Positions 19,527-56,266 of a DNA stretch of 64,000 nucleotides are shown here, piece by piece (positions within the stretch are counted from its first letter, which is position 1; every line of letters begins with the position of its first letter). The notes under the pieces were generated by a model that saw nothing but the letters and a program-made list of their open reading frames with translations, did no database searches and was not told where the DNA came from. The translations under genes were made by a program, and so were the position numbers. This stretch comes from Diadema setosum (taxonomy: Eukaryota > Echinodermata > Echinoidea > Diadematoida > Diadematidae): NCBI GenBank assembly GCA_033980235.1, contig CM067066.1, positions 41,006,977 to 41,070,976 on the forward strand. Direction: 5' to 3'.

Positions 19527-19752
19527 ATTTTGAATCCAAGAAGTATTTTGTGGTGGATGGAACTGTGCATCAGGTAGTGCTGGGGGGTAGCACAACATCA
19601 TGGCGGCCATCACAGGCTTTCACCAACAATGTTCTTAAGATTCTTATAGAAGAAGTCATGGGATATGCCAATGTCTCCATAGCAACAGATCAAGAGAAAG
19701 TCATCAGTACCACTCAAGCACTCTCTCCAATTAGTGGATGTATGGATGCTGC
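19527..19752 (+). CDS. Receptor exon 1 (visible): start of OpuAC-like domain
   Basis: The exon follows acceptor ATCTACAG and ends at donor GC|GTAAGT. It opens with two bases completing a codon and closes with two bases of the next. The 75 residues include VVDGTVHQVVLGGSTTSW, then FTNNVLKILIEEVMGY. The latter is the first helix pattern of glycine-betaine/proline-type substrate-binding proteins (OpuAC/ProX), where a leucine-rich helix ends in GY before a strand (here ANVSIA). An N-glycosylation motif (NVS) fits an extracellular location. The signal peptide must be encoded upstream; no start codon fits here. The intron that follows is 9.9 kb. Confidence 0.85.
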
Positions 19753-20017
19753 GTAAGTATTGCAGACTGATGTATTAATTGTTATTAGCCATAGATGACC
19801 CTGGCTTTTTACTTGCAAAGAACAGGTTTTCTTGACTATCAAATACTAAGAAGATACAAGACATTCGCTACAGTTTTAGAGGGGATACATACCAATGTCA
19901 ATTTCCACTTGTATGCTTGAACTTTGGTAAAATTTGTCCACAAATTTGGCAGGCTTTGTCACCGGAGTGATGAATATGAATGGGCACCATGCTGCATCTC
20001 CCTGGGATCCCCCCAAC

Positions 20018-20040
20018 CCCCCCCCCCACCCCCAAATTAA

Positions 20041-20070
<30 letters not shown>
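20018..20070 (+). repeat. Poly-C, poly-A and TA simple sequence
   Basis: A C-rich run, an A run of about 20 and a short TA run follow each other in the first visible intron. The reverse-strand open frame across it is an artefact. Confidence 0.9.
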
Positions 20071-20072
<2 letters not shown>

Positions 20073-20236
20073 CAAAAAAAGAAGAAAATTCTTTGAAACC
20101 AGAAATACTCTGAGTGAACATATTAGTGAATGTACTTTCTAGGTTATTAATGGTACATCCAGGGAAGCCCCCAGTGGGACTTGGATAATTTGGGGCCAAT
20201 TTTTACATTTTGATCTTCATTTTTAAAATGCATGGT

Positions 20237-20291
20237 CATATATATATATATATATACATGTATATATATATGTATATATATATATATATAT
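20237..20291 (+). repeat. (TA)n microsatellite
   Basis: TATATATA runs interrupted by ACATG and TG, in the first visible intron. Confidence 0.95.
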
Positions 20292-20373
20292 TCTTTTTTT
20301 TCAAACTTGTTGAGTAGTATTGTGATATATGGACACTGATGCCCTCAAAGTCCTCAAGACCAAGTTTGCTATC

Positions 20374-20468
20374 TTTCAATCCGCTGAGGATGGACTGATT
20401 TTGCTACAACATGCATTTCCCATAGACACTTGCCTGAGTATACTCGGGACTCGTCCTCAATGGGTTAA
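20374..20468. mobile_element. Palindromic MITE, family G, copy 3
   Basis: CTGATTTTGCTACAACATGC, CATTTCCCATAGACACTTGC and GAGTATACTCGGGACTCGTC are in reverse orientation relative to copies 1 and 2, closing with CTCAATGGGTTAA. The left end is eroded. Confidence 0.85.
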
Positions 20469-20608
20469 GGTAATATTCTGCAAGAGTGCTTGGAAGGTGA
20501 AATGTGATACTTGGATTAGTGTGAGAGCATGAGATCTCTTGTAGTTCTAACAATGCAGGAATTTTCAGAGTTTGTACTATCAAAATCCCCTTCCAATATT
20601 CAAAAGAA

Positions 20609-21116
20609 TTGAGTATATGAATATAAGAACGACCCAAGTCCATGGAAGACCATTTCGAGTAAACTAAAAAAAACTTCATATCTTTTTTGTTTGTCCAATA
20701 ATATTCTATTTAACTGTAATGGGATGGCAACATTGTATATACAAATTAGAACATATATTATTATGACAATTAACATTAACATTAATTGTGGAGAGGCCAT
20801 TTTGTGTGATGGACTTGGGTCGTTCTTTGATTCATATGGACTTGGGTCGTTCTTTGATTCATATACATGATATTCTGCTATATAGAGATGAGAGAAGGAC
20901 GAGAGAGGGCGCTATAATATGAATGTAAGAATGACCCAAGTCCTTCATTCGTACATTCATATAAGATTTAACTCATTTATTTCAGGCACTTCCGGGGGTA
21001 ATCAGGATTTATCATTTATACACAAGATGAGTCCATGCATAAGCTACAATTTCCCATGTCAAACTGAATTTGACCAAAAATTGGACTTGGGTCGTTCTTA
21101 TATTCATATACTCAAT
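20609..21116. mobile_element. Composite palindromic element with repeated 25-bp motif
   Basis: The outer ends are inverted: TTGAGTATATGAATATAAGA at the left and TCTTATATTCATATACTCAA at the right, continuing through ACGACCCAAGTCCA. The same motif recurs inside at 20811 and 20838 (tandem, GGACTTGGGTCGTTCTTTGA) and near 20919 (reverse). The element is thus built of at least five copies of one motif. Confidence 0.85.
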
Positions 21117-22670
21117 TATTTATTGATCTCAATGACATCATTTTGTGGAAATGAATTCATGATGAGCATAAATGCAGGGTTGACAGTAGGCATTATTGTG
21201 AGGTGACGGTTTTACTCAGTAGATTAGTGCTAGCTTCTAAGTTGCCTCTTAGGCATGGAAGCATGCAATACAATTCTAGTTATACTATGATTTTAATTCA
21301 TGCAGGATATGACATGTTATTCAATCTATTTAGTCCTGTTCTCATTATGCTTAGATTGCATTGGTTTGCAGAGTGTAAAAAACTAGTATAAATGATGAAC
21401 TGTTACATCTTTAAGAAGAAGTGCTTCATGGAAATCAATAGCTAGAAGTCTCGTGGGCAGATAGATTGTGTATGGACTAATGTTTAAGATTACTGCAGTG
21501 CTTTGAACACCGATCTGTGTTTGTTTATTTTGATACACTTCATTCTTCTGCATTAGCCTAGTAGCCTATTCACTACTGAAAGACAGGCTAGAGGCCACTG
21601 CATATCTGCAATGAGCAAACAAATGTGATAAGAAGTAGTCTAGATAATACAGTTTGTCTGGGATAACATCCAGAGGTGTATGAAAATACCCCAATATTGA
21701 CACTGCAATCCAGGGGTTTTTGTGATAGTAGATCACAAAAAGCCATCTGATATTGTTCTCACATATTGTTTGTTGATGCAGACTAATATGCTGTAGCATT
21801 GTAATGAGAGCTGAAAAGAATCTACTTGAGTATCAGTATCAAATTGCTTGAAGAATCATATCCTTGGAAATATCCATATGTTTGATATTTAATGAAAAAT
21901 GACTACTAATCAGTATCTATAGAGATTCGAAATGTCATGTGAGAGCACATACTTGCAGAGAAATTGGTAATTACTGTATTGGAAACCATCAAAGTAGAAC
22001 TGAAAGTGAGCAGGAATATTATTGTCTGTATGACAATGGCAGTTAAAAACTTACCGGGTTAATTAAAGATACTACCAGAGTCAGCCAGTAAAATTTGATT
22101 TTATGCAAGTGCAAAGCACTGAAATCCAGCTTGATTCAGCTTACTGCAACACATTTTTTTTTTCTTAACTATGGGTAGCAAACTTCAGTGTACAGTTTCA
22201 GTCAGGATTGTGAGGTTGCTAGGCAACTGTCACACAGGTGATGTTCTCATCCTCATCTTTGCTAGAGCAAGGACACTAGGTAACCAAGCATGCAACCGTG
22301 GCATGCAGTGACTTAGTCTTCCATGAAACCTGCCAAGTTCAGAGAGTGTCAAGTATCTCTCAACACAGTGAGATGCTTCAGCGTCATAGTCATTGCCATT
22401 CTTAAAGAGACTTAACATGTCAAGCTCAGTTTTGGCTATTCCCAACATTTAATTTTCATGTCCTTTGAGATGTTAATTGTTCACAGCATCTGTGATTTGA
22501 CACTTACTGTATTTTATGACAAATTATGAAAGTTGCACACATTGTTAGTGAAGAGTATGCATATTTCAAATCTCCCACCTCCCTGGTTTCATAGACACAT
22601 ACAAATAAGTTACTTACCTCAGCTGTAGTTTGCTTGTCTGTGATTGTTGGGAATCTTTGATGTTTATGAA

Positions 22671-22952
22671 GGTTACAGCTCGTTATTTCGAAGGTTCGCT
22701 ATTCCGAAGGCTCTTTATTCCTAAGATTCATTATTCCGATGGTTCATTGTTCCGAATTTCATTTTCGGATTAACCAATCTTCGGAGTAAGGAACCTTCGG
22801 AATAATGCCACATATTTTCGGATTAACGAACCCTTTTTCATTTTCGGATTAACGAACTTCTAGGTATAGGGAATTTGCGTGTTTTGGATTAACGACCCTT
22901 CGGAATAACGAACCTTCGGAATAGCGAACCTTCGGAATAACGAACAGCACCC
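22671..22952. mobile_element. TTCGTTATTCCGAA palindromic element, family F, copy 2
   Basis: This copy starts GGTTACAGCTCG and ends CGAACAGCACCC, the reverse of copy 1, with inner AACGACCCTTCGGAATAACG and GGTATAGGGAATTTG shared. It is in the first visible intron. Confidence 0.88.
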
Positions 22953-23055
22953 GTTTATGAATACATGTGTATATTGTCCATATATGCAGGGCCTCCACGA
23001 ACAACAGTGTTCAACTCACTGATGGAGCCACCCTGTGAGAGCAAGACTCCAATAG

Positions 23056-23127
23056 ACAAATAACAAATAGATAAATAAATAGATAGATAGATAGATAGAT
23101 AAATAACAAATAGATAAATAAATAGAT

Positions 23128-23160
<33 letters not shown>

Positions 23161-23206
23161 AATAAATAAATACATAAATAAATAAATAAATAAATAAATA
23201 AATTTT
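23056..23206 (+). repeat. (TAGA)n/(TAAA)n microsatellite
   Basis: Blocks of AGAT and AAAT repeats; the minus-strand reading (IYLS/IYLF) is not a protein. The preceding CCACCCTGTGAGAGCAAGAC (about 23030) may be the 3' end of a SINE or LINE whose tail seeded the microsatellite. Confidence 0.93.
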
Positions 23207-24529
23207 ACAACATTTTGCTGCATCATGACATCAAAAGGTCAGAAAGCCTTCTGGTAGATGTTGGTTAGTCCACTCAGTGAAGAATGAACAATAAGAAGAA
23301 GACACAAAGCTAAGACAAAGCTATAAATATATTCCAATATATTTTGTAATGTGCCATGCAGGGGCATTATATGTACTAAACATACTGTGTAGGGTACTGC
23401 ATGTTTGTTATTTTCATCTTGTCATTTGCTTATAAGTGGGTATATAATTCCTTAATTCCTTTTTTCCCTTCATCATCTGATCAAGTCCATATCATATAAA
23501 GTAAGAGATATGTTTCTCCTAAGCAATTTATACTAAATGTCAGTAAAGTTCAGTCTTGATATGCAGGTACATGTCCTCTTGAACTACTTCCACAGAGTGC
23601 TTTGTAATTATGTACATACACTTTAATGATTCATTTATTGTACATTTATTGAGAAAATCAAGCACTTCTAAAAAGACAAAGCATTCAGTTAAAAATGTGC
23701 ATGAACAGTTTTCTTGAACGTGTTTTCTTGCTTTTTGTTTCTTCTGTAGAAAATTCAAGATATGTGGAAGTGAGCGTTAACTTATGTGTGGATGAAAATT
23801 TAACCAATGAATTACTTGTTTACTTGGTATGTGATGACAATTATCATCATGAGTTTTGCTTGAAAAGAAACTTGATATGTATGGTAAAGGACATTCTAAA
23901 GAAATTACTATATTTTTATGTCACTAGTTGTAAGTAACTGTTACTAATTAACTAATTTGATAAGTACATTATTCTCAAAGCATTATATGCACTCACTAGA
24001 CAAAGGTTGGAGTAGTCTTCCCTATCCGTATGGCATAAGTGTTGGCTGTCAAATAACCTTCAGTTCAAATGGATGTGATGACTTGCAGTTCATTCTCTTC
24101 AAGACTGAGGCACTTAAGAATGCTTTTTCAAATCGAAATGGGTCAAAGTAAACCACAAGCATGCATCACTTTCAGATTAATAGGTCTGTTGAGATTTGAG
24201 GGCTTTACTCATCAAGAAGGTGTGAAATTTTCAGATGATTTATCACCTGCAAGATAGACTATGTCCTTCATTGGTTAATAAATTGTTTTCCTTACATTAA
24301 AAAAACCCTGAATTTCTTGTCTTATAGTGGTTTACTAATAAACTTTTTTTTTTTTTTTTTTTAAATCAAACATACCCTTTACAGGTTAGTGATTTTTAGT
24401 CTTGAAATGAACGATGTTGATTCTTTTTTTCCTTCATAGCAAGATGACTTAAGCCTTTGTGATTCATTTGAATGCAAATTAGAAATTACACTTAGTTTAG
24501 CCATGAGAATAAGTGGTCCTTTGCTATGT

Positions 24530-24990
24530 TTGGTAATAATAATATAATAATAATTATGACATTTTTACAGTGCATATAACAAATGAATGTTCCCTATGCA
24601 CTTTACAATCTCATCACAAAAACATACTGTAATTAACAATTTACTTTCAATACACACCCATGTACAAAAAATATCAATTCACAAATGAATAAGTCTTTAA
24701 AGAAGATTTGAATGAGACCAATGAAGACGACTGATTGATATGTTGTGGTAATGAGTTCCACAATCTTGGGGCAGCAACTGAAAAAGACCTGTCACCATAA
24801 AACTTTGTATTAACTTTAGGAATGCAGAGAAGGGATTGATGTTGTGATCTACAACTACATGTATATAGGGACAGGTGAGGTAATTAATTCCTTGAGATAT
24901 TGTGGACTGATATCATTTTGAACTTTATAAACTAACAGGAGAATCTTAAATATGAGACGTAATGAGGGTTTCTTGAGAATTTACAATAGA
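24530..24990 (-). pseudogene. CR1/L2-like LINE, reverse transcriptase C-terminus
   Basis: Minus-strand reading from about 24960 gives RLIFKILLLVYKV then NDISPQYLKELITS. After a frame change, near 24810-24700, comes NTKFYGDRSFSVAAPRLWNS followed by LPQHINQS, then SFKSSLKTYLF. These are the standard last motifs of CR1/L2-type LINE ORF2. Stops and frameshifts show it is dead. It lies antisense in the first visible receptor intron. The TAATAATAAT run at about 24535-24555 probably marks its 3' tail. Confidence 0.88.
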
Positions 24991-26159
24991 ATACTACCAA
25001 ATGGAGCATTTAGTTTGCAAAAGAAAGATGAAAGCAATAATATGTGGTAAAAAAATGTTTATCTTTCAAAAATCTATTGCATTGACAAAAAGCAAATTTG
25101 TCTATATTTGGAAGCTTACTAATCAGGTGTTGTTGTATGACACACTTTTAAAAGAGACAATTTATGCTCCTATCATAATTTGTAAACTCATAGTTTTTAT
25201 ACCATCTAATACTTAATTTTTGGGATGAGCACGTCAGGTTGAAATGTCGTATGCAACCCTGATTCAAATGTTTGTATATTTAGTAAGCAAGTCAATGACC
25301 TTAGAGGAATGGACCGCAAGATATTAGGCTGCTATGTATGTAACTATTGGCAAACCACAAGTAATTTCCTGCCTCTTATTAGCGAGTGTTAATGTCTTAA
25401 GTCTGTAACAGTTTTATTAAAGCCTGTGAATGTTAGTTGTTTATGACAGTGTCACTGATGGTCTGGTTGAGCCCTAGGAGAGAGGGGAGGGGAGTGGAGG
25501 GGGTTAGGGTCTGGATCTGGTTCTGGATCTGGATGTGTACAAGGCAGGGCCCTTATTGGCCATGGATCTAAAGGGTTTAGGGACTGAAAAAGTACATGAT
25601 TCGATTTTATCAATACTTTGTATACGCCTGTAGTAGGAATCATCTTGTAGGAGAGAGATGCAAAGTTATTTGAATTACAAAAGGTCTACATTAGGCTGAA
25701 GTCCAGGACCCATAAAGGTCAAAGCTGTGACTATTGATTTAACTTTTCTAGACTACGGTTCAATTTACCTTAGTTGCCTACTTCTTAGATACCTTTATTT
25801 CATCATGTTGAAATGCTCATACACTTAGCATCACATCCCTGTGGGTGGTTTTCTCTAGCTTTTGGATATATGGTATCATATTGAATCAACAATATGTGAC
25901 TACTTTGTTTCACAATGATGGCTGTTAGTACCTTCTGTCATGGTCACAACAATTGTTGCCATTAGAAGGAGTTCTCATTTTCAGCTTGGACTTGTATATT
26001 ATACGAAGAGTGTTTGAAATATATGTACAAAATTTGACAAAACGGCAACAATTGTATCCATAAAGTTGAGATTTAGTAAGCTTACAGCCACTATATATGC
26101 CCTCTCCTTTTATAAAAGCCAATGGGAAAGGACATTTTCCATTTTACTCCCTGTCACCT

Positions 26160-26340
26160 TGTTACCTTAGATTCAAGATTCAAATTTATTTTCACTTCTT
26201 TCAAATAAACAAAGAAATTATATACAATATATATGCACAAGATATTTGTAATAATTACAGAATGTGATTTAACAGAGTACCTTAGATGTAATGCTGAAAT
26301 ACATTTGTACTGCTATTAATGAGATAAAAAAAAAAAGTTA
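26160..26340. other. Possible LINE 3' end, weak
   Basis: GATTCAAATTTATTTTCACTTC followed by A/T-rich sequence and TATACAATATATATGCAC resembles the complement of LINE tails such as that at 6240-6290. No coding part is attached, so this is tentative. Confidence 0.25.
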
Positions 26341-26548
26341 GCTATGAGGATAAAAGCAGTCCTGACATTGTAAGCCTTGTATTGATAACTGGTAGGCTTA
26401 CAACAGTTTAATGATGATGCATAAGGTACATACATATGATCATTGATTAGGTCCTTGATAATGAGCAATATAACATTAATAGCCATTATTTAGGCTTTAC
26501 AGTTTTAAAATCATACTAAAGGGTCCTAAAGGTTTCTTGTATGATCAT

Positions 26549-26645
26549 TTAACCTGTTGAGTCCCAAGTATACTTGGGTATTTGTCTGTGGGAAATGCGT
26601 CTGTGGGAAATGTGTGTTGTAGCAAAATCAGCCCTCTCACTACAT
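26549..26645. mobile_element. Palindromic MITE, family G, copy 4 (truncated)
   Basis: TTTAACCTGTTGAGTCCCAA, then AGTATACTTGGG, then GTGTGTTGTAGCAAAATCAG. The TCTGTGGGAAATG segment is duplicated in tandem. The right inverted end has been lost after CAGCCCT. Confidence 0.8.
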
Positions 26646-26952
26646 AACTCAAATGATAATTTGGCCGACAGTTTAAACTTGAATACAGTAATTTTTCTTT
26701 TCTGATTATCAACCAGTGGTATATATTTCTAACTGCCACACAGAAAATTAAGATTAATTTCATTACATTGTGATATCTATTGTATTCTACTGAAACTTTT
26801 CACCAAAGCCACTATTTTATCAATATTTGCATGTCCTCTGTAGCTCTGAAAGTAAATAGAAGAAGTGTGTAGAATTGATGTTTCTATTCAAATGTAGGAC
26901 CAACCTTGTTTGATTTTGGATATTTGCATCTAAAAAATGTTCCTGATGTTAT

Positions 26953-27548
26953 TAACTTGTTAAAGACTAGTCCTGAGTATACTTGGGTAGGTGTCTATTA
27001 AAAATGTGTGTCATAGCAAAATCAGCTTCCTAGAATACTGTAAACGTGGAAATTTTCGTGGTACATTAATTTTCGCGGATTTCGCGCTACGTTCGGCTAG
27101 CGCGAATTCAAAAACGCGCGAATATATCTTCGCAATTTTCTATGCACATTTTGAACGGCCTGAATTGTGTGTGCTTCGTCGATGATACTGCTACGTAGTA
27201 CAGACATGTTTACGCATATAGCAGTATCATCGCACGCACCGCACGAACCGAGCCCATGGCCGATTGCTGTGCTACATCCCCCGCGACTACAGTACTAGTA
27301 CTACAGTACATGTATCGAGTAAAATACACATGTACTACGTAGTTGAGCGCTTGTACTCGCACTCGCGCCACTCGCTACGTCGCTTATCGTACGCTGGCAT
27401 CGCTGGATGAAAACAGAGACTGTGTATTAACCCGCTTGCGGAGTGCGAATTTAAGAACCCGCGAATATGTTTTCGAGCCGCTCAGCGCGAAAAATTAATC
27501 GCGCGAAAATATTGACGTTTACAGTAATCAAGCTTTCCTCAGCTTAAC
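26953..27548. mobile_element. Palindromic MITE, family G, copy 5, split by a family-E element
   Basis: The left part (26953-27031) reads TTAACTTGTTAAAGACTAG through AGCAAAATCAGCTTCC. The right inverted end, CTTTCCTCAGCTTAAC, appears only after the family-E element at 27036-27526. The order of events is therefore family G first, family E later. Confidence 0.65.
27036..27526. mobile_element. CG-rich palindromic MITE, family E, copy 1
   Basis: Ends TACTGTAAACGTGGAAATTTT and AAAATATTGACGTTTACAGTA are inverted. Subterminal parts are rich in TTCGCG/CGCGAA. The interior is unusually CpG-rich for this window (for example CGCACTCGCGCCACTCG). Related copies are at 44903-45116 and, truncated, 62224-62366. 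Confidence 0.9.
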
Positions 27549-28450
27549 ATAGAGAGGGAGAATAGAAAATCAAACCAGATTCTCAAGCAAGTGTGTTCTG
27601 ACATTTTGGTAAGGGAGTAGTATGCTGTATGTAGTCAATGAGAGCTTTTTCTGTTTTATCGGGATCCATCTCCTCTGGTTCTAACCTTGGAAGTCACCTA
27701 CAAGCCTTCATTTCAAAACTAGTCTGGATCAAAGACTGGGCAGTAACAAAGGATCTCCACTTGAGTAGCTTTTGTGTGAGTCAGAACTCGTATTCCCCAA
27801 AACATCAACGTCACTCCAGACAAGCTGCTGGAAAAGAGGAAACTGGGTAATGACAGGGGGCTAGATGGAAAGAGCTTCATTGCTTCCATGAACACGTTTT
27901 ATGACAGTATTGGGATATGACGTCATTTTCATGAGCAGAAAATGGAAAACCTTTTAATGCAGGTTTAGGTGAGAAAACAATGAAATTCAAAAATGATTCC
28001 ATCTGCATCATAATCACTGGCACATGTTCATGGTGAAGTTGTATTAAGGCACCTTGTAATGCATGCAACATCAATATAGAAACATTATTTAATATGCTAA
28101 AAAAAAAATGCCAGGAAAGCTATTTTACACACTGCAATGTGACTGAAAGTCCACCACATATGTCACAAGGGATCATTAGAAAATTTTTGCAATGTATTCA
28201 AAAGTATGGGTGTATCTTTCATGTGATTTCCAGCAATTTGTCATTCTTTGTACTGCTTTTGTTAATTTCTTTTTTGAAGCCAGGGCAACTCTTTTTGGCT
28301 TGATTGCTCTCTGTGAGGTTAAAGTGTGCTCAAGACAGTTTCTTTCTTTTAAACCAGATCTTCTGGTAGACCAATCAAATATTTCTCTTAACATGCAGAC
28401 ACTTTATTAAGCTAGTGGGTAATAAAGGCAAGATGATTTCAAATATGTTT

Positions 28451-28650
28451 TTTTTTTTTTTTTGTACAATTTTTTTTTTTTTTATAGAATGGACAAGAAA
28501 AACAATATAGATTGGGCAAATTGTGTGATCAAATTTTCTTTTTTACTTTTCCCAATTTTCTCTTGTTTTCCTGAAAATGCCATTGGGTGCAATATCACAA
28601 AAACAAGCAATATCACCCAAAAAAAAAAAAAGAAAGAAAAAAAAAAAGAG
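28451..28650 (+). repeat. Poly-T and poly-A low-complexity tract
   Basis: T runs at 28450-28485 and a purine run AAAGAAAGAAAA at 28618-28648. Translations through it are artefacts. Confidence 0.9.
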
Positions 28651-28654
28651 CTTC

Positions 28655-28983
28655 AGTATCCACCGAAATCAATTGTCTATACTTTCATTTCCTTCAACAA
28701 GTTTCAGTATCCACCAAAGTCAATTGCATATCGTCGCTGGGGTGACAAAACCTCGTATCTCAAAATTGTCAAATGTTCAGGAGAGCGAAAAAACATGGCG
28801 GCCAAAGCACTATAGTGAATGGGAAAGCCTTCTCTTTGACATGTCATGGTGGCTTCATTTTTGGAGTAAGACAGTTAGGATTTGGCCAAGACATCACTTG
28901 ACCCATTATTTGACCATTAAGCTAAAAAAATTTTTTTTTTTGACATTTTTGAGATACGAGGTCTTGTCACCCCAGCGACGATA
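28655..28983. mobile_element. Palindromic element, family H
   Basis: ATCGTCGCTGGGGTGACAAA at 28730, continuing ACCTCGTATCTCAAAA, is inverted at 28943-28983 (TTTTGAGATACGAGGTCTTG, then TCACCCCAGCGACGAT). To its left, CAGTATCCACC and ATACTTTCATTTCCT lie in a tandem duplication of about 49 bases. ATACTTTCATTTCCT recurs just beyond the right end, possibly a target duplication. Confidence 0.8.
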
Positions 28984-28989
28984 TATACT

Positions 28990-29641: not shown

Positions 29642-29779
29642 ATGTTCTGAGCATGCCCCCCATGGGGCTAATTCCCCTTCCATCAACCCAGAGGTGTGGC
29701 TAGATGACCCCCTTAGTCTCCAGGCATGGCTAGACACTCAAGAGATCTTGGACCTAGGACCCATCGGGATGCAGGCTAG
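29642..29779 (+). CDS. Receptor exon 2: OpuAC-like domain
   Basis: The first base completes GC+A (Ala), and the exon ends with two bases (AG) at donor AG|GTGAGG. The 46 residues include CSEHAPHG, then NPEVWLDDPLSLQAWLD and a closing DLGPIGMQA. The NPEVW motif and the LGPIG turn before a GWY segment are what I associate with eukaryotic receptors bearing an OpuAC domain. The acceptor has only a modest pyrimidine tract. Confidence 0.88.
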
Positions 29780-37451: not shown

Positions 37452-37661
37452 AGTCTAACTTTGAGATGCTAACAACCCAGATCCAGAGTCTTGGTTTGAT
37501 GGTGGGCGTGGCATGGATTGGAGCCAACTTTGTGTCCACAATCCAGGAGAGACAAGAGAATGGTCAACCTACACTGTTCTTCAACTGGACACCTAATGAC
37601 ATCACCTCAGCTGGTGCCTTCAGTCGCATTGCCTTCCCATCATGCCAACAGGAACAAACTA
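37452..37661 (+). CDS. Receptor exon 4: OpuAC-like domain
   Basis: Acceptor ATGCCTAG. Two bases (AG) complete Glu, and one base is left at donor A|GTAAGT. The 70 residues read LGLMVGVAWIGANF, then GQPTLFFNWTPNDI and FSRIAFPSC. The strand GVAWIG and the aromatic FFNWTP cluster are consistent with the second lobe of a type 2 periplasmic binding fold, where tryptophans usually line the ligand pocket. NWT is a potential glycosylation site. Confidence 0.93.
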
Positions 37662-38168: not shown

Positions 38169-38402
38169 TGGAAGATACTGGCGGCTGTGATACCCCATGG
38201 CAGAACGTACACAAAGTAGTGTGGCGCCCTCTGGTGACAGGTGCTCCATACATCTATGACCTCCTGAAGGATGTGCGATTTTCCAATTCTCGCATGGAGT
38301 CTATTATGTACAACTTTTACTTTAGTCGGCTGGATATGACTGAGTTTGCATGTCAGTGGGTTCAAAGAAACGAAGGAACCTGGGAGCCATGGATACCAAG
38401 TG
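38169..38402 (+). CDS. Receptor exon 5: end of OpuAC-like domain
   Basis: The acceptor is TATGAATTAG and the first two bases (TG) complete ATG (Met) with the base left by exon 4. One base is carried over at donor G|GTGAGA. The 78 residues include GGCDTPWQNVHKVVW, then GAPYIYDLLKDV, FYFSRLDM and a closing CQWVQRNEGTWEPWIPS. This tryptophan-rich tail appears to end the first binding domain. The intron before is only 507 bases. Confidence 0.92.
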
Positions 38403-40501: not shown

Positions 40502-40744
40502 GCACAGTGGGCATCCGTCGTACCATTCTGCTAGGCGGATTGTTTAACAGCCTGACCAACCCCCTGTCCAGCCACTCTGGCATTGAGCCAGGAGCCAGGA
40601 TGGCAGTGGAGGCAGTCAATGCTGACCCAAGTATCCTCCAGAGCTTCAAGCTGGAGCTTGCTGCCATGGAAACAGGATGCGATCCAGAAACATCTCTCCT
40701 CTCCTACTTCAAGTTCTATGAAGACAGGGGCCAGTCTCTTGCAG
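40502..40744 (+). CDS. Receptor exon 6: start of GABA-B-type Venus flytrap
   Basis: Acceptor TTTATCACAG; two bases complete Gly, one base left at donor G|GTAAGG. The 81 residues read RRTILLGGLFNSLTNPLS, then GIEPGARMAVEAVNADPSIL, LELAAMETGCDPETSL and FYEDRG. These match the opening of GABA-B receptor ectodomains (type 1 periplasmic-binding fold, ANF-receptor family): a GLF strand, a helix with AVEAVN, then a D/E-x-x-C-D-x-x block. The second binding domain therefore begins directly after the first. Confidence 0.95.
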
Positions 40745-41924: not shown

Positions 41925-42087
41925 GACTAGTTGGACCAATGTGTTCTGCAGAGACTGAGGTGGTGGCAAGTGTGTCCAAGTTTCTCAACACAGTGGTGGT
42001 CAGCTACCGGTCAGACTCACCCAGTCTGTCCAGCAAAGACCGATATCCATTCCTCTTCCGTACTTATCCAGATACAACACAAGAAAG
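41925..42087 (+). CDS. Receptor exon 7: GABA-B-type flytrap
   Basis: Acceptor TTTCCGAAG; two bases complete Gly and two bases (AG) remain at donor AG|GTGAGT. Residues GLVGPMCSAETEVVAS, then VVVSYRSDSPSLSSKDRYPF and LFRTYPDTTQE follow the GABA-B pattern GPGCSxxxxxVA, SYxSxSPxLS, then FFRTxPS. In GABA-B1, Ser residues in the first two motifs and the His of FRTHPS contact GABA. Here the His position is Tyr. Confidence 0.95.

Positions 42088-46373: not shown

Positions 46374-46430
<57 letters not shown>
46374..46430 (+). repeat. (GT)n microsatellite
   Basis: About 28 uninterrupted GT units. Confidence 0.98.
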
Positions 46431-46433
<3 letters not shown>

Positions 46434-46899: not shown

Positions 46900-46992
46900 T
46901 TTCATATTCTTTTTACTCAAGTTTGATCTTTAGATGTATGATGCCAGTGTTATTTGTGGGAAACGGGATAGACGAAATGAAATGAAATGAGA
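46900..46992 (+). mobile_element. Probable LINE 3' tail
   Basis: GTGGGAAACGGGATAGACG followed by a short AAATG repeat resembles a LINE 3' untranslated end with a simple-repeat tail. The T/C-rich stretch upstream (about 45130-46890) may be its untranslated body, but no coding part is recognisable. Confidence 0.3.
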
Positions 46993-47940
46993 TTTTAGAT
47001 ATATCCCTAAAGTAGAACATAATCATGCATAGAACTGTTATGCAAGATATACAGAAATGTTTGCCCTCATTCATTTTCTTGCTGCAACCATTGGTAGAAC
47101 CGAAGACACTTGAGATTGTGACTTATTTGTTCAAAAGTTAGGTGAAGGGATATGGGTACAATGTTTAGATAACAGCACAAAACCTCTCCATTTTTATTTA
47201 TTTATTTTTTTAATATGTTCAATTGGCTAAAACTATAAGCCAAGCCAAGCCAATTGCCTGTAGTGAATTTAGGGCAGATCTAATGAAAATCAAAAGAAAA
47301 ATATTCCATGTTGTTCAGTGATGGCAAGACAATGTACTGCAGTGGGTTAAGGGCAGTGTTAGTGAAGGCTGAAAAGTTCTTCACTCATGCAAATTGCATG
47401 CTAATGATAAGATGCTTTATCAACTGAAATGAAATTTGGTACAAACCATGATGATATCCAAAGTAAAGTATTTGTCATGATTAACTGGAGCTTAATTAGT
47501 TTACATTCAGATACGATTAGTTGGTCAAAATGTTTGTGAATTTGTCTTAACACAAAAACAGATGTGTGAAAGGAATTATCATTGAGGCTTTGTCATTGAT
47601 GTCTATGGCAAGATATGAATTTAGTATGTTATCAACTAATGTCTTTTTTTTTTTTACTCTTTCCTTTGAACATTCATATACTATATAAATACACATGTAG
47701 GAAACATTGGTCTTAAAAAGTTTATCTTTTCACTTGCTGCACAAATATGAGTTTTTCCTTTATGAATAAGCATGTTATTGTGATTTTAGTTTGTACATAT
47801 GGGCAGAATGTAGAATCATTTGAATCTCAAGAAACATAAAAAAGAATACATGTGGTATTGACAGGGTTAAAGATTCAACGATGGGTTTTATGCCTATGGC
47901 TGCATCTGTACCAATTCAACCATATCTTTTATTTCTACAG

Positions 47941-48220
47941 CTATGCCATGGTGAAACTATTCCAAAACTTTGGATGGGGGCGCTATGCAATGCTCTCTGC
48001 AGGCGATAAGGTCAGTTTAGAGATTGCTTTCAACATGCAGGAGGTTATGGCAGCCGGGGGCATCGACGTCGTCATGAACATCCGCATTGGAGAGGATGTC
48101 GGGGAAGAGCATGTGGCCCAGTCGTACATGGGAGAGATACTGTCCAGGAATGCCCGTATCCTGGTAGGTCTCTTTCCAGAGAATGAGGCACGGACCCTAC
48201 TGTGTGAAGCTTACAAGCAG
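47941..48220 (+). CDS. Receptor exon 8: GABA-B-type flytrap
   Basis: Acceptor TTTATTTCTACAG; one base completes AG+C (Ser), and it ends on a whole codon at donor CAG|GTGAGA. The 93 residues include VKLFQNFGWGRYAMLSA, then MAAGGIDVVMN, ILSRNARILVGLFPENEAR and LCEAYKQ. These align with FGWxxVATI, the DARIIVGLFYETEAR motif and CEVYKE of GABA-B1. The aromatic Tyr of GLFYE, which packs on GABA, is Pro here. Confidence 0.96.
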
Positions 48221-48774
48221 GTGAGATGTATGCAGTTTATAGTTGGTGGTTGGGGGAAAATTGGTGTACAGATTGATGGAGGCTAGAGATACCCTGTTTA
48301 ATTGAGTTTATAGGAATACAGGGATTTGCACTCTGGAATGCAAGCAAACAAATCATTTTCTCATATTGAAATTAAGCACCAAAGACAGTGCTCACATATG
48401 AACTTTCGGCTTCTTAAACATTGCAGATATAGCTCTGTTTAAACCATCTAATATCAGTGATAAGAGCTTTGATTTAATCAAGTTGAAAAAATGATAAACT
48501 TTTCCTAGATAAACTTTCCCTAGCCCCTAGACCCTAGTCATCACTAGAAAATCTGAAACATCCAGCTCAAAATTGTTGGTTCCAAGTTAATGTGAAACAA
48601 GTATGATAACATAATATATGCGTGCCTTTGCACAGCTAATCTATAAAATACATGACCCTTTGCTGCAAAACTCTACAAAGCCCAGGAGCCTGTTCTATTA
48701 GTGTTTATCCCTGTATTAAGAAACTTATTTGCTGTGGTTTATTAACCACAACTGACTCATTTTGTTTTGATTAG

Positions 48775-49074
48775 GGTGTGACTGGAACACAAGGCTATCA
48801 GTGGTTCTTGCCAGATTGGTATGAGGATGGCTGGTGGGACACAGACTATCACAACAAACTTGCAGCCTCCTCTTCCTCCTCCTACTCCTTCCCTTATACC
48901 ACTACACCATCCTCCTCACACAACATCACCTGTTCCACTACTGAGATGGTGGAAGCCATTAGAGGCTACATCAGTCTGTCTCGAGCATACATCGCTAGCT
49001 GGGGTGAGCAGGTGCCTGGAGGACTGACAGTGGAACAATGGATTACCCAATATAACTCCCTTATTGAGAAAGAG
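48775..49074 (+). CDS. Receptor exon 9: GABA-B-type flytrap with Ser-rich loop
   Basis: Acceptor TTTTGATTAG and donor GAG|GTGAGA, both between codons; exactly 100 residues. YQWFLPDWYEDGWW is the strongest family signature, equivalent to YVWFLPGWYxxxWW. It is followed by a low-complexity loop (ASSSSSYSFPYTTTPSSS) ending HNITCS, then MVEAIRGYISLS and LTVEQWITQYN. The family has a shorter acidic or polar loop at this place. HNITC is a glycosylation motif beside a cysteine. Confidence 0.96.
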
Positions 49075-49417
49075 GTGAGAATACAAGGAACAGATAGGGA
49101 GGTGGTGGCTATGAAATGAAGTATAAATCAAACTGTGCTGCTGACATAATTATTACTATCTTGTAGTCTCTTTTTTATCTGCATTTTACATGAATAAGGA
49201 TAGTGTCATCTATACGGACTTAGTAGCTCTGCACATTTGTTAGTCATCTGACATCCATGGAAGTGAACCTTTTAGAAAGTAATTAGCTGATACTGAGACA
49301 AAACAAAAATGTTTGGGATTAATTTGGTATTTAGCTGTGCTGGTAAATACTATGCCTACTATATCTATGAAGACTAAGCAGAGCTTAGAGTAAACACCAT
49401 GTTTCATAACATTTCTC

Positions 49418-49693
49418 AAGGCGCGGTCAGACTGGCAAAAGATCTCGAAGTTTAATATCGCTATCTTTAAGATCTCGAAGTTTTGCCAGTGTGACCGCAA
49501 ACTTCCCGCGAAACTTCTCGATCTGTTTGCGGGCGGTGCCTCCGAAGCGCGAGACCATTGTCATGTACAGATGTGTATTGTTACGTCACAATCACTAGCC
49601 ATCGGACGGCGCACTCTTTCTTGCGTCCGTACCAATGGCCCAAACTCCGGGATCTTAAACTTCTCGATCTTTTGCCAGTCTGACTGTGCCTTC
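49418..49693. mobile_element. Palindromic MITE, family I
   Basis: AAGGCGCGGTCAGACTGGCA at the left and TGCCAGTCTGACTGTGCCTT at the right are inverted ends, continuing AAAGATC. A further internal inverted copy (GAAGTTTTGCCAGTGTGACC) lies at 49478. The interior is CG-rich. It lies in the 918-base intron between exons 9 and 10. Confidence 0.85.
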
Positions 49694-49992
49694 AGAGTGA
49701 TAATTGGCCACAAGAAAGGAAAGTTTTTGGTTCATGCACTATTAAGTTCATAAGATCTCTTGGTAAAAGCTGTGTGTAATAAGATGCACAATCAGCTATC
49801 ATGAATAGTTTTCAGTGGTAGATTATAAGGAGGTAGAAAGCTTAAAATCATGTATGATGTCATAATAGTAGCAGTATTCATTAATGGTATGATATGACTA
49901 GCTGATCATAAATTGTGCAGGTAGGAACTCAACAGTCTCCATTAAATCAATCAACATGACATTCAAACATGATTTCTGGTCTTTATTACTAG

Positions 49993-50120
49993 GGCAAGCA
50001 ACCAGCCACCCATGCTGCCTATGCCTATGATACTGTCTGGGCCTATGCCTTTGCTTTGGATAGACTTCTGAGACATGATGCAGCAGCCCTGGATACACTG
50101 TCATCTCAGCAGACAGTGAG
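49993..50120 (+). CDS. Receptor exon 10: GABA-B-type flytrap
   Basis: Acceptor TTTATTACTAG, starting on a whole codon (GKQPATHAAYAYDTVWAYAF), and leaving two bases (AG) at donor AG|GTAAGA. AYAYDTVWAYAFALDRLL matches the family motif APLAYDAVWALALALN. The Glu that precedes APLAYD in GABA-B1 and binds the GABA amine is replaced (His-Ala at the corresponding place by my hand alignment). Confidence 0.95.
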
Positions 50121-52023
50121 GTAAGATTTCATCATGGCTCCTAGTTTGATTCTAAGTTTTCTTGCATTTCACCACACACCACCCCCACCACTGATTTAAG
50201 TAGGACAGTTCATAAAATGCATGAAACAAACATATTCTAAAAAATGTATAATTGCTATTGTACATTCTAACAGGGAGGTGTGGTCTCACCTCCCTGATTC
50301 TAAGTATATTTTCCCTTCTGAATGCATGATGCTGTAGTGGCGACAGTGGATTCTCTAATTCTGCACCGAGCGTGTCGGGTGTAACAGAGTGTCAGGTGTA
50401 GCAAGGGAGATCTTTCTAAGTAGGGAAGTGCATTGGGAGTGAATCTGTATCATATAGCTTCACAGATTCCCTGAGGACTACAACTCATTCTTCATAATTA
50501 CACAGAATCAGAGATGTGCCAGGATGGAAGCCTGTGTCCTTGGAAGCTTGGTTTATGTCTATTGGTGTTGTAGCTGAGTATGATAAAAGATCAATCTGTC
50601 ACTCCTTGCACGAGCTGAAAGGAAAGACTGCATTATGTAACATGAGCCTTCCCCTTGCAGTTGCTCTAACCCACTTAGCATGTTATTTGATGGGCGGATG
50701 TAACCTTGAATTTGGTGAACACATGGCACCCGTACTCTCTAGGCCTAGTGATGTTTCTACATAATGGGGCCAAGTTATCCCCCCCCCCCCAGTCTATCAT
50801 CCTCATCCCCCTGGGGATCCCAAGGGGGTGTGAGTGTTGCGACACAGTGACTCCCTCATCATGAGGTCTACTTGGCACAGGCTGGCTGGATTTTAGCATG
50901 GACAATAGTCACTACCTTACACTAGGGCAGCTAGTAGTCTCAGTAAGGGTGGATAAAGAAGGGGGGGGGGGTATGTCTAGAACTCTTCTTTCCTATGCAG
51001 TATTCAACAAAGTGATTTTGATTCAATGTGATCCCTTTTAATAGATATACTGACAAAGAGAAAGATTCTCAGTGCAGCATAATATTTTGTGATGCAACAT
51101 AAATCATGTCCTCTGGATTTCTGTGCATCATGATTTTTTTTTTTTTTTTTATGCTGAGGAAGAGAATGATGAAATTTATCATTATGTCCTGTAAGTTTAA
51201 GCCTATGCTGTGGTGTTCTGTTTTTGATCCAGGAAAAGAGAATGTTCACATGTTTAAGGCTCAGTTTTAATGAGAAACTTACTATCAAGCTAGATTTGAG
51301 GGAGACAGAAAAAAGTAGTTTGGAGATAATAAGAGCAAATTAAAAAACAACAACAACAAAACCAGAATAATTTTGAAGTGAAATATGATAGAAAGAAACA
51401 TAGAAAAACATGTATTCTCATTTGATTTTTGAAAACAGAAAGAGAAGCATTGAAGATTGAGTGGAGCTGTGGGATATTAAGGTCATATTTTTTTTCAAAT
51501 AATATCTGTTCTTAAAACAAATATGTTTTGGATTCCTGAGAAATTAACAATGGAACCAAAGAGGAAAAACCAGTGGTCTGTCTTTCCTGTGCTCAGTTTC
51601 ACCATGACATTGATTGGAATATATGAAATTCACTTTGTATATGTATGTACATTGAGTGTGAAGCTTCTAGTATAGACAAAGGCACAGTGAATTACTTTCA
51701 TGGTAATTATTGACCAAGAAATTCAATTTTGAGCATAAATTCCCCTCCAATTTAGGTACAGGAATATTTGCATGGTATTGTCACAAGTTCCTTGTTTTTC
51801 TTTAATATGAGAATGACCTTTTTGAAAAAATTCTGTGAGTGTTAAAAACAAGAATGAACTTTCATGTCACCTGCATAAAGCGCTTAACCAATCAAAGCTG
51901 AGACTTCAGAACCCTTGTGTTGAAAGTACGTCATTCACAGTGTTCAGGAAGTAGTTGGTTAAGGTGATAAAACATCTTCACTCCAAGCATAACTTGGCCT
52001 CTGTGCTCTATTGTGTACTGCAG
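50121..52023. other. Intron sequence, nothing recognised
   Basis: No element recognised. Homopolymers: C run at 50780, G run at 50962, T run at 51136. Ends in acceptor TTGTGTACTGCAG. Confidence 0.5.
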
Positions 52024-52144
52024 TGCGTACATGAAACATCTGAGTAACACATCGTTCAGTGGAGTAACAGGACAGGTTGTCTTCCTTGGACAAGATAGGA
52101 GAGGACCAGTCAGCATCCATCAACATCATCCTCCAAGCACCACA
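52024..52144 (+). CDS. Receptor exon 11: C-terminal part of flytrap
   Basis: One base completes AG+T (Ser), and it ends between codons at donor ACA|GTGAGT. Residues AYMKHLSNTSFSGVTGQVVF then LGQDRRGPVSIHQ match GABA-B2 NETNFFGVTGQVVF then ERMGTIKF, closing the flytrap domain. NTS is a glycosylation motif. What should follow is a VGxW/Y segment, a linker and the seven-helix domain. Confidence 0.94.
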
Positions 52145-52679
52145 GTGAGTTTTTATTAATTTCATTTTTAATTGCTCTTTAACTTGTATATGTCTCCTTG
52201 GTTTGTCTGCTATAATCTCTTGATAAATATTATTTTCCTTATATCTTTTTCTTTTTTATTTCATTGAATCTACTGTTTCTAGTTTTGCTCATTTTTTCTT
52301 TCTGGTATAGCTCTCATGCTATTCTCTTTTCATTATCTTTAATATGACTCTATGTAATTTTCTCTTGTTCTTTGCTCCTTTGCAGTTTTTTCCTTCCTTT
52401 CCTATCTCATACTGATAATTTTTTTTTTAATCTGCCATTTTCCCCCCAAACCCTTTCCTTTATTTTCCTGTTTCTCTGTTGATTATTGGATATTTTGTAC
52501 TGAAGATGATCAAATGATCTCTTATGTCTTTATACATTCATTTCAGCCTCTGTTATTTGCTCTTCACGTACAGCATTTTTCACCAACGATAAGTGGTATC
52601 TTGATGGACATGTAATAACCTTAACCTCTTTTTGTGTTTTGTTTTTCTTGCATTAATCTGTAATGATTATTTTATGTTT

Positions 52680-52832
52680 TTTTGTTTTGTTTTTAGCTGC
52701 ATTCTCTTCATTATATGATTTCTATGTTGTATTTTGTTATCATTTCACGGTCCTGCTGAAAAACAGCTTATAGCTGATAGCAAGTTTTTACTGTGGTTAA
52801 ATAAATAAACTCAACTCAACTCAACTCGACTC
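52680..52832 (+). mobile_element. LINE 3' end with (AACTC)n tail
   Basis: CGGTCCTGCTGAAAAACAGC, then ATAGCAAGTTTTTACTGTGG, AAATAAATAAAC and four to five CAACT repeats are typical of a non-LTR 3' untranslated end. The T/C-rich sequence from about 52150 may be more of the same element. No coding part is visible. Confidence 0.45.
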
Positions 52833-53005
52833 ATGACTTGACCACATTTCTGTCTAACTACCACATCTGACTTTCCTGTGAGTGGTCATTGTAGATAGAT
52901 TTGATTGCTTATGATTTTGAAAAAGGGATTAGCAACCATTTATGCAAGTCATCAGGATTTTTCTGTAACTTTTCAGTGGATTTTTCACAGTGGTTTCTTG
53001 TTAGG

Positions 53006-53006
<1 letters not shown>

Positions 53007-53042
<36 letters not shown>
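53007..53042 (+). repeat. (TG)n microsatellite
   Basis: About 16 TG units with one TA interruption. Confidence 0.96.
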
Positions 53043-53045
<3 letters not shown>

Positions 53046-53059
53046 TTGTATTGAATTCA

Positions 53060-53335
53060 GTGGAAGCGTTATAGTGCATTAGATAGAATTCTAGACTTGT
53101 AGCAAGAGATCCAAGGCATACCAGATTCTCCCCTTCGGGTGTATCCATGCATGATATTTTACTTGCCATGTCCCTGTTGAACACAGAGGTATAAATGGGT
53201 ACCATTGGCAATGAAATTGACAGCAAATATTGGATGATGGTTTAGACTCAACAATATTATTTACAGCCTCATAGCTGCTATTAAATATTTTCATTATTGT
53301 CATTATTAGCATTATTTCGTTAAATCAGTTATTGT
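53060..53335 (+). mobile_element. Degraded tRNA-type SINE
   Basis: TTATAGTGCATTAGATAGAATTC with CTAGACTTGTAGCAAGAGATC resembles the tRNA-derived head of invertebrate SINEs with eroded A and B boxes. GGTATAAATGGGTACC (53189) is a body motif I associate with such SINEs, and ATTATTGTCATTATTAGCATT forms a TTA-type tail. Confidence 0.45.
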
Positions 53336-54040
53336 GGTCTTCTGACCTTTAATACTTGTGCTGTGCTCATACTGTGATCTGAAAGTTACAAGGCTAATTT
53401 TGTTTGTTTTATCACACACAAATTGATTTTAAAAAAAATAACACAGCTATAAAGTGAGTATTATCTGAACCCAGGATTTGTAACTTCATCAGACAACTTC
53501 TTCTATATCACAATTCATGGCATCTTACCAGTGCAGTACAAAAGAAACAAATGTTTGAGGTGGCAATGATATGATGCAAAGATTGACTAGGATGGTAGCC
53601 TCAAAACAAATGAAAGTATACCAGGAAAATGGTACTGTCTGTCAAAAAGAACAAAAAGAACAAAAAGAGTATATTAGAGATATGTGCATCATATTTCTTT
53701 AACTCTCTGTTTTCATTTTTTTTTCTGTTGTCAGGTGTTACAATGTATGTATTTAACATAAGATGCAGACAACTCTAAATATTTTTCTCACTGCTACTCA
53801 ACATAGAAAGATGGAGGTACATGTATTGAAACATTTGGCTCATGTTCACCTGCAGTATGCCATGTACAATACAGTCATATCATAGAACAATGTAAGCTTA
53901 TTATCCTTATATTTTTCAAACTTACCATTCCAAGGTATGCATACATGTACATATGAAAGTGTCATATCGGGGGTTACACCAACTCTTCTTGCAAGTGAAA
54001 GTCTTGAACAAAGTCCATCCCATCAGATTTTATTGCTAAA

Positions 54041-54165
54041 TAAATTAAGTAATTAGATAAATAAACAGATAAATAAATAATTAGATTAATTAATTAATAG
54101 ATAGATAGATAAATAAACAAATAGATAAATTAATAGATAGATAAATAGATAAATAAATTAATTGT
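54041..54165 (+). repeat. TAAA/TAGA microsatellite
   Basis: Imperfect AAATAAAT and TAGATAGATAAAT repeats leading up to the weak acceptor at 54173. Confidence 0.93.
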
Positions 54166-54583
54166 TTTCACAGGATGGCTCCATCAGTGAGTTGAATACT
54201 GTTGTTTATGGAGACAGTTCTTGGACAATAAACACATATATTCATAAAGATCAGATGGGCTTTAGTCATTCCTGCAGTGAAGCCTCATGTTTTGATAGTC
54301 TCTTAAGTATACGGTCTTGTTACCAAAAGTCTTGCTATAGGTTTCTTTGCCAACCAGAGACCACTATAAATAGGTAGATTACTCATTGAAATTAAGAAAA
54401 ATTGTCAGTTGTACAGGTATGTATTTATAGAGTGACACTATGTAAGAATTCCAAAGTTCTTCGATTTTTTTTAAAGTCTTGAGTTTGAAATGTTAAAATG
54501 TTTGAAATTTGAAATTTTTGAAAAATGTTTGGAGAGTATTTGTATATTGCAGACATTTTCCAGTCCTTAATACTTGGCAATGC

Positions 54584-54976
54584 TTAAAGGGATAGTTTAG
54601 TTTTGGTTGAGACCTTACTCCAGGTTTCTAACATTTTTTGGTGAGATAATGAGAAACCTCTTTTAAAATGTGGAAGGGCATGTAATTCCAAGACAAATTC
54701 AACGTTTATTTGATGAAAATTGGTTTTGAAATGGCTTATTAAATATCCAAAACAGAGCAATCCTAATAAAAGGTGGGACCTGCCTTTTATTACGATTGCT
54801 TTGTTTTACTTTATTTTTGGATGTCTCAGCCATTGCAAAACAGATTTTCATCAAATAAACTTTGAATTCCTCTTTGAATGGTGTGCTCTGTACTATTTCA
54901 AAGGTGGTCTCTTGGCATCTTACAAAAAGCTCAAAGACCAATCCTCACCTCAACCAATACTGTACCATCCCTTTAT
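54584..54976. mobile_element. Palindromic MITE, family B, copy 2
   Basis: TTAAAGGGATAGTTTAGTTT at the left and the inverted GTACCATCCCTTTA at the right. TTTGATGAAAATTGGTTTTG pairs with CAGATTTTCATCAAATAAA. Same family as 39791-40180. Confidence 0.88.
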
Positions 54977-56146
54977 TTTGTCTTGGATGTCTTCTGTGGG
55001 TGTATAGGAGGGAGATGTGTGGAATTGTCTCCCAATTCTTCTCTGAAGCTATCCAGCTGCTGTCCAGTTACCTGTCAGAGCAGTGATCATAAATTTGACT
55101 AATAGATTTGGATACTACATGTACTATATCTTTTAGGAATAAGCACCTGTATAAAATTTTGTAAGTTATTTGAATTGGCTTTCAATAGCCACAGTGAAGA
55201 AATTATTACCAAGTATTTTCCATCTTTGAGAAAAAAGGAATGATTTCCCAAATTCATAATAAACATTTCATTTTTGTTGCATGAAACAGTATTTTTCTCA
55301 AGTTGTTAATTTGGCAGTTATTGGATGACTCATGAAATTTTAGAAAAAATAAAAACTCTGTGAAGTAAATATTGTGCATCCAGTATCATGTGGCTATGAT
55401 GGTATTTTCTTATTTAAGTAGGAATACCCACCTAATGAAACTATCAGCAGTGAAGTCATTTATTTGTTTCACTACTGAAATATCTATAAAATAGCTTGGT
55501 CTCGTGAATTTCTTGAGAACAGCATGTATTACATAGGTACAATTAAGCTAATGTGATGAATCTGACCGGCACCTACCAGCTGGTAGGATGAATCTTGCCT
55601 CTTACAGACAGACAGCAAGAGACTGGAATGGTATTTAGATTGACTGTTGATCAGCCATCCCATGACTTGCAAGAACTGGTTGACAAAAGAGAAAAGAGTT
55701 TTCCTTAACCTGCTGGCCTGCTATTAATGCCACCTGCCTCCCACACACTGACAGGAGTCAGCATCTTGTGTGAGGTGCAACACCCTGGGCATGTCTGAAA
55801 ACCACAGCATTGGCATGGAAAGAAAGTGGCATCAACCACAGTAGCTAGCATAGCCCTGACAGCATCACCAGGGGCCTATTGTGGTGAAACAGTTACCAGT
55901 CTGATTGGGCTATGGACCTTCGATGATCCAAGCACACTCAACAACCACATGTCTGACAGTCACCTAGAGAAAAGGGTGGAGACAAATATGACTTACTCAT
56001 TTGGCAAAGTATTGGTATCTCTGCAACTTTTGGGCTTAAGATTCTCTTCCTTGCTCTCCAAAGTTGGTTGACGGATAGACGAGATCAGAATGTGGTTGGC
56101 CAATAATTAGTCTCCCAGTATGCCTCTTCATCAACCTCTACCACAG

Positions 56147-56266
56147 GACGTGAGCCAAGTCTGGCAGAGCTTAGGCACGGATTATGGCCTGACAGAGACC
56201 TGCAGCTCCAATCTGTATGAGCTGCAATTCCCCAGCACTCCAGCCACAAATTTTCATCCAGACCCT
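56147..56266 (+). CDS. Probable receptor exon 12: end of flytrap
   Basis: Acceptor AACCTCTACCACAG and donor CCT|GTTAGT both fall between codons, matching the phase left by exon 11, and only this frame is open. The 40 residues include VWQSLGTDYGLTETC, then LYELQFPSTPATNFHPDP. They fit the expected VGxW segment and the (I/V)xWPxGxxPxxxRP-like strand that precedes the linker to helix 1. The likeness is weak, the donor is not the preferred GTAAGT/GTGAGT, and other exons could intervene, so this is a probable call only. Confidence 0.5.

What the first reader, a model, noticed from the sequence alone, without database searches (positions are those of the whole stretch)
19527..56266. Class C receptor with two stacked binding folds: OpuAC-like plus GABA-B-type flytrap
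Seen: eleven exons join in one frame, with every split codon completed correctly and no stop. Exons 1-5 read as an OpuAC/ProX-like (type 2 periplasmic) binding domain; exons 6-11 read as a GABA-B-type (type 1 periplasmic) flytrap. Known: GABA-B receptors normally have only the second. Inference: this receptor could read two ligands, or use the first domain as an osmolyte or quaternary-amine sensor gating the second. I am not aware of any functional work on such a fusion.
Basis: partly seen in the sequence, partly recalled or inferred. Interest (0 to 1): 0.87.

Follow-up and report, generated by a model that had tools for sequence, protein, structure and literature searches.

The report
Venus kinase receptor with second flytrap
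A sea-urchin gene taken for a GABA-B-like receptor is really a Venus kinase receptor, a tyrosine-kinase sensor of invertebrates, and outside the cell it carries a second clamshell domain, related to bacterial osmolyte-binding proteins, that the papers we could read on this receptor family do not describe.

Summary
The join is largely real, but the receptor class is wrong. One exon was missed (29642-29779), and the fifth belongs to the flytrap. A signal-peptide exon lies 37.9 kb upstream of the window, and eight exons downstream (66270-73306 in window coordinates) encode one membrane helix and an insulin-receptor-like tyrosine kinase. Twenty exons join in frame to 1467 aa: a Venus kinase receptor (VKR), not a class C GPCR.

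An osmolyte sensor is only partly supported: by alignment, three of five key cage residues remain in urchins and one in the spider. I infer a regulatory second ectodomain, with or without its own small ligand.

The parts
19527..19752 (+). Exon 2: start of the OpuAC-type N-terminal domain (exon 1, signal peptide, lies outside the window at -37946 to -37847)
29642..29779 (+).
   Evidence: present in P0003
31049..31323 (+). Exon 4: N-terminal domain, GWY motif and cysteine-rich insertion
37452..37661 (+). Exon 5: N-terminal domain, FFNWTP motif
38169..38402 (+). Exon 6: end of the N-terminal domain, EPWIPS (5' border uncertain)
40502..40744 (+). Exon 7: start of the GABA-B-type flytrap
41925..42087 (+). 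Exon 8: flytrap, amino-acid-binding serine S483 and arginine R521
47941..48220 (+). Exon 9: flytrap
48775..49074 (+). Exon 10: flytrap, GYQWFLPDW motif
49993..50120 (+). Exon 11: flytrap, YAYDTVW
52024..52144 (+). Exon 12: flytrap; exons 13-20 (end of flytrap, membrane helix, tyrosine kinase, tail) lie past the window at 66270-73306
56147..56266 (+).

Best explanation
The window lies inside a Venus kinase receptor gene of a sea urchin, Diadema setosum or a very close relative. The 1467-residue product is: signal peptide, a type 2 periplasmic-binding domain of OpuAC/TmoX type (residues 27-394), a type 1 GABA-B-like flytrap (395 to about 843), one membrane helix (about 863-884) and an insulin-receptor-like tyrosine kinase (918-1205). 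Shown here by computation: gene structure, domain order, both fold assignments, kinase motifs. Inferred from published VKR work: the receptor is a dimer; an amino acid (L-arginine in insects and one schistosome receptor) closes the flytrap, and the movement brings the two kinases together. Inferred here: the membrane-distal OpuAC-like domain is a second regulatory ectodomain that sets or gates this response, either by binding its own small ligand (plausible in urchins, where part of the aromatic cage remains) or as a docking and dimer-contact surface for a larger ligand (more likely in arthropods, where in the one spider seen most of the cage has gone).
Against: No transcript or protein data. 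The function of the N-terminal domain is not shown. Only three sequences beside the window could be compared (one of the same or a sister species, one other urchin, one spider genus); no insect, mollusc, annelid or flatworm VKR was retrieved. The good model had 35 bacterial OpuAC-type rows in its alignment, so its fold leans towards theirs; with three VKR rows alone the model failed (pLDDT 38.8). On full-length proteins OpuAC stays below Pfam's cut-off in S. purpuratus (16.2 bits) and is not listed for the spider; cut out, the spider domain is still below it (14.2 of 21.2) and finds no OpuAC protein in the PDB. NCBIfam gives only sub-threshold hits for the window (ProX 15.1 of 215 bits, choline-binding 14.1 of 379) and none for the other two. 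In several hhalign runs the first 95 or so residues are not aligned.
Confidence: 0.78

Rival explanations
1. Class C (GABA-B-type) G-protein-coupled receptor with two stacked binding domains: seven-helix exons would follow the flytrap.
For: The flytrap is closest to GABA-B1 among solved structures.
Against: The frame runs through eight further exons into one membrane helix, a tyrosine kinase and a stop; relatives have the same layout. A crude scan for hydrophobic exons over the window's end and 90 kb downstream showed no seven-helix set, but it also missed the true membrane exon, so it carries little weight.
Confidence: 0.02
2. Second ligand sensor for a methylated osmolyte: in urchins the upper domain binds TMAO, betaine, choline or DMSP and the kinase reads osmolyte and amino acid together.
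For: Nearest structures bind these compounds; urchins keep the equivalents of TmoX W55, W102, W222 and F220 (pocket list from PMC8918994).
Against: The equivalents of E131 (F in urchins) and W177 (N) are lost, and the spider keeps only W102 and F220. Assignment is by sequence alignment; W177 could be one column off, where all VKR rows have F.
Confidence: 0.25
3. The upper domain has lost small-ligand binding and serves as a structural, dimer-contact or protein-hormone docking module.
For: Pocket residues vary between urchins and spider while the domain as a whole is as conserved as the flytrap. A mosquito VKR is reported to bind the protein hormone OEH (PMC4522560 section 5).
Against: Three of five key cage residues persist in urchins. 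No VKR binding site for OEH was found mapped in what I read.
Confidence: 0.45
4. The two blocks are separate genes that only happen to be adjacent and in frame.
For: No transcript evidence was available.
Against: Separate predicted proteins of Diadema, S. purpuratus and Trichonephila carry both blocks in one chain, and the signal-peptide exon belongs upstream of the N-terminal block.
Confidence: 0.02

Closest known systems
Venus kinase receptors (SpVKR of S. purpuratus; AmVKR, AgVKR, SmVKR1/2)
   Same: GABA-B-like flytrap, single membrane helix, insulin-receptor-like kinase, amino-acid-binding serine and arginine; 20 exons here against 21 reported for Spvkr (PMC3703292 Table 2)
   Different: What I read of eleven VKR papers names no domain before the flytrap; here that region matches a type 2 periplasmic-binding domain
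TmoX (TMAO-binding protein, PDB 4xz6) and the OpuAC / ProX / ChoX / DmpX substrate-binding proteins
   Same: Fold, C-terminal motifs and several pocket aromatics of the N-terminal domain
   Different: Bacterial transport proteins; the VKR domain has a cysteine-rich insertion, lacks the E131 and W177 equivalents by alignment, and sits on a receptor kinase
GABA-B receptors (class C GPCR)
   Same: Type 1 flytrap
   Different: No seven-helix domain here; a tyrosine kinase instead
Glutamate-family GPCRs of the fungus Allomyces with OpuAC N-termini (PMC3251606, passages)
   Same: An OpuAC-type domain used as a receptor ectodomain in a eukaryote
   Different: Seven-helix receptors; six are listed with OpuAC, and the passages seen do not speak of OpuAC stacked on a flytrap

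Membership tests
Venus kinase receptor | Extracellular GABA-B-like Venus flytrap | tested here: met
   ANF_receptor E 3.1e-46; GABA-B1 E 1.2e-43
Venus kinase receptor | Single transmembrane helix | tested here: met
   Hydropathy over 1.6: signal peptide (windows starting 1-12), one segment (windows starting 857-870), and one isolated window at 1035 inside the kinase
Venus kinase receptor | Insulin-receptor-like tyrosine kinase with the catalytic motifs | tested here: met
   Motifs; insulin receptor 9.9e-79 and Schistosoma VKR2 4.4e-74
Venus kinase receptor | Amino-acid-binding serine and arginine of the flytrap | tested here: met
   S483 and R521; residues named in PMC3703292 section 8
Venus kinase receptor | Dimeric receptor activated by amino acid, ion or hormone | not testable with these tools
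   Needs expression and binding assays
Class C GPCR (GABA-B) | Seven-helix domain in frame after the flytrap | tested here: not met
   Frame runs into one helix, kinase and stop. The genome search with the 7tm_3 family did not complete (nine requests)
Receptor guanylate cyclase (name given to P0001) | Guanylate cyclase catalytic domain | tested here: not met
   No cyclase domain among the Pfam hits (E up to 1) of P0001, P0003, P0004, P0005. The window's own full-length protein was not scanned; P0003 differs from it by 6 residues and a 19-residue stretch outside the first exon
OpuAC-type substrate-binding domain (type 2 periplasmic fold) | Profile match over the domain | tested here: met
   PF04069 5.6e-9, 36.4 bits against cut-off 21.2; hhalign 99.1% over 278 columns, 97.8% over 227
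OpuAC-type substrate-binding domain (type 2 periplasmic fold) | Predicted fold | tested here: met
OpuAC-type substrate-binding domain (type 2 periplasmic fold) | Complete quaternary-amine cage (TmoX W55, W102, E131, W177, W222) | tested here: inconclusive
   By alignment urchins keep 3 of 5 (W55, W102, W222), the spider 1 of 5 (W102)

The most novel reading that the evidence does not exclude
Venus kinase receptors across animals are double-flytrap receptors: a membrane-distal type 2 (OpuAC-type) domain related to bacterial osmolyte-binding proteins, stacked on a type 1 amino-acid flytrap, with the upper domain a ligand or hormone site of its own, so that the kinase integrates two signals. This would help explain why one receptor family is reported to answer to amino acids, calcium and a protein hormone.
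Probability: 0.35. Interest if true: 0.85.

Novelty: new variant of a known kind. Interest (0 to 1): 0.62.

Why it matters
VKRs are reported to control egg formation in mosquitoes and schistosomes, and how they recognise ligands is debated: arginine, calcium and the neuroparsin-like hormone OEH have all been reported (PMC4522560 section 5; PMC4038586 abstract passage). The accounts I read place ligands on the one flytrap. If some 370 further residues of ectodomain, as conserved as that flytrap, form a second periplasmic-binding fold, the ligand question gains an untested second site, assays on the flytrap alone are incomplete, and domain-deletion tests become straightforward. It is also a clear case of a bacterial-type solute-binding domain on an animal receptor kinase.

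Tried and rejected

Literature limits: the library holds open-licence papers only. Ten searches listed no paper that by title or abstract treats an OpuAC-type domain in a VKR; in the ten papers listed the OpuAC count is 0. Seen of VKR papers: PMC2680970 passages and sections 16-17; PMC3703292 outline with abstract, passages, sections 6 and 8; PMC4522560 passages and section 5; passages only of PMC4026697, PMC4038586, PMC5601475, PMC6401105, PMC5026347, PMC4888303, PMC9661718, PMC5289644. Also passages of PMC8918994 and PMC3251606. None was read whole. The original mosquito OEH-VKR paper is not held.

Mended in the filing check: the Pfam result belongs to a 683-residue join, not 725; the minus-strand repeat lies at 23000-23029; four more VKR papers were looked at; sub-threshold and negative family hits are now stated.
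Full report
WHAT WAS CLAIMED. Its individual exons were not given; I reconstructed a list that starts and ends on its coordinates.

THE EXONS. Ten exons have acceptor and donor sites and compatible phases (plus 49993-50120). A 683-residue join of nine of them hits ANF_receptor (E 3.1e-46), Peripla_BP_6 (1.2e-15) and OpuAC (7.9e-5, above Pfam's cut-off). A protein search with the 725-residue join returned two proteins: P0001, 1018 aa of S. purpuratus, named as a guanylate cyclase but carrying a tyrosine kinase, and P0002, a spider fragment. tblastn of P0001 on the window plus 90 kb downstream found the flytrap exons in order and then eight further exons past the window, at 66270 to 73306. A second search, scored on the N-terminal region alone, gave three full-length proteins: P0003 (Diadema setosum), P0004 (S. 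purpuratus) and P0005 (the spider Trichonephila clavata). P0003 exposed a missed 138-base exon at 29642-29779. P0004's signal peptide found the true first exon 37.9 kb upstream of the window (tblastn E 3.4e-4). The final model has 20 exons in frame and encodes 1467 aa. Outside the first 33 residues it differs from P0003 by 6 substitutions, one of them at the uncertain junction before exon 6, and by a 19-residue stretch there, so the genome is Diadema setosum or a close relative; P0003's own first exon looks mis-predicted. In the whole genome the N-terminal domain matches only five places, all exons of this gene; the search scores only its best candidates, so single copy is likely, not proven.

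WHAT THE GENE IS. Signal peptide, N-terminal domain (27-394), flytrap (395-843), one membrane helix (about 863-884), kinase (918-1205). The kinase is closest to insulin receptor (9.9e-79), and Schistosoma Venus kinase receptor 2 is among its matches (4.4e-74); the catalytic motifs listed for VKRs are present (motifs from PMC2680970 section 17). The flytrap is closest to GABA-B1 and keeps the serine and arginine said to be required for amino-acid recognition (S483, R521; PMC3703292 section 8). It is therefore a Venus kinase receptor. S. purpuratus VKR is a known gene with 21 exons whose flytrap is given as exons 9-14 (PMC3703292 section 6, Table 2).

DOES IT BIND AN OSMOLYTE? The TmoX pocket is Trp55, Trp102, Phe106, Glu131, Trp177, Phe220 and Trp222 (PMC8918994, passages of section 15). 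In alignment A4 the order below is P0004, P0003, spider: W55 is W, W, R; W102 is W in all; F106 is P, P, G; E131 is F, F, T; W177 is N in all, with F next; F220 is F in all; W222 is W, W, R. The window has the same residues as P0003 at these motifs. So urchins keep 4 of 7 and the spider 2 of 7. E131 and W177 are invariant in the 35 bacterial rows, but one search pattern included that glutamate, and by eye two plasmid proteins (L020, L027) lack it. Yet the domain is as conserved as the flytrap: 71.7% (264 of 368) against 67.9% (301 of 443) identity to S. purpuratus, 34.3% (119 of 347) against 31.2% (134 of 429) to the spider. Constraint without a constant pocket fits a regulatory or docking role at least as well as an osmolyte sensor.

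HOW WIDESPREAD. Shown in two phyla (urchins, one spider genus). Indirect: the flytrap serine of Anopheles VKR is residue 505 (PMC6401105, passages) against 483, 500 and 465 here, so the mosquito protein has room for the same domain; locust VKR has 1277 residues (PMC5601475, passages) against 1272 for the spider. No insect, mollusc or flatworm VKR sequence was retrieved.

WHAT IS KNOWN. [quoted passage not shown] What I saw of ten further VKR papers mentions no such domain. A 2015 review leaves open how the flytrap can take amino acids, ions and a hormone (PMC4522560 section 5), and a 2016 paper notes VKRs in species with no neuroparsin found (PMC4888303 passages). OpuAC N-termini are reported on six Allomyces glutamate-family receptors (PMC3251606, passages). 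The precomputed Pfam domains of P0003 already include OpuAC, so the label exists in databases.

MECHANISM. Most likely: a dimeric receptor in which ligand-driven closure of the lower flytrap brings the kinases together (reported for VKRs by others, not tested here), with the upper OpuAC-type domain adjusting that step by its own ligand or by contact with a partner (inference). I hold a functional regulatory or docking module of some kind at about 0.65 and the methylated-osmolyte version at about 0.25; these overlap.

Noticed in passing
P0001, P0002, P0005 (database proteins): VKRs or VKR fragments carry database names such as receptor-type guanylate cyclase gcy-8, guanylate cyclase, insulin-like peptide receptor and a UniRef name beginning Gamma-aminobutyric acid type B.
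   Followed up: partly
window from 16558 to about 16660 (+): First exon used by the Diadema setosum database protein P0003; it codes no signal peptide and does not match S. purpuratus, so it looks mis-predicted.
   Followed up: yes
window 54177-54206 (+) and 23000-23029 (-): The same peptide GSISELNTVV on opposite strands, suggesting a dispersed element that could be mistaken for an exon; an inverted-repeat search inside each stretch found none, and the two were not compared beyond the peptide.
   Followed up: partly
window 10909-11380 and 13118-14043: Minisatellite-like arrays giving repetitive open frames on both strands.
   Followed up: no
window 24746-24790 (-): Peptide RSFSVAAPRLWNSLP, which I recall as typical of the end of LINE-type reverse-transcriptase frames; not tested.
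   Followed up: no
alignment A4, column of S. purpuratus domain residue Y220: A DYP motif of the VKR domain is shared in part by bacterial rows (Y in 25 of 35), which may point to the nearest bacterial subgroup.
   Followed up: no
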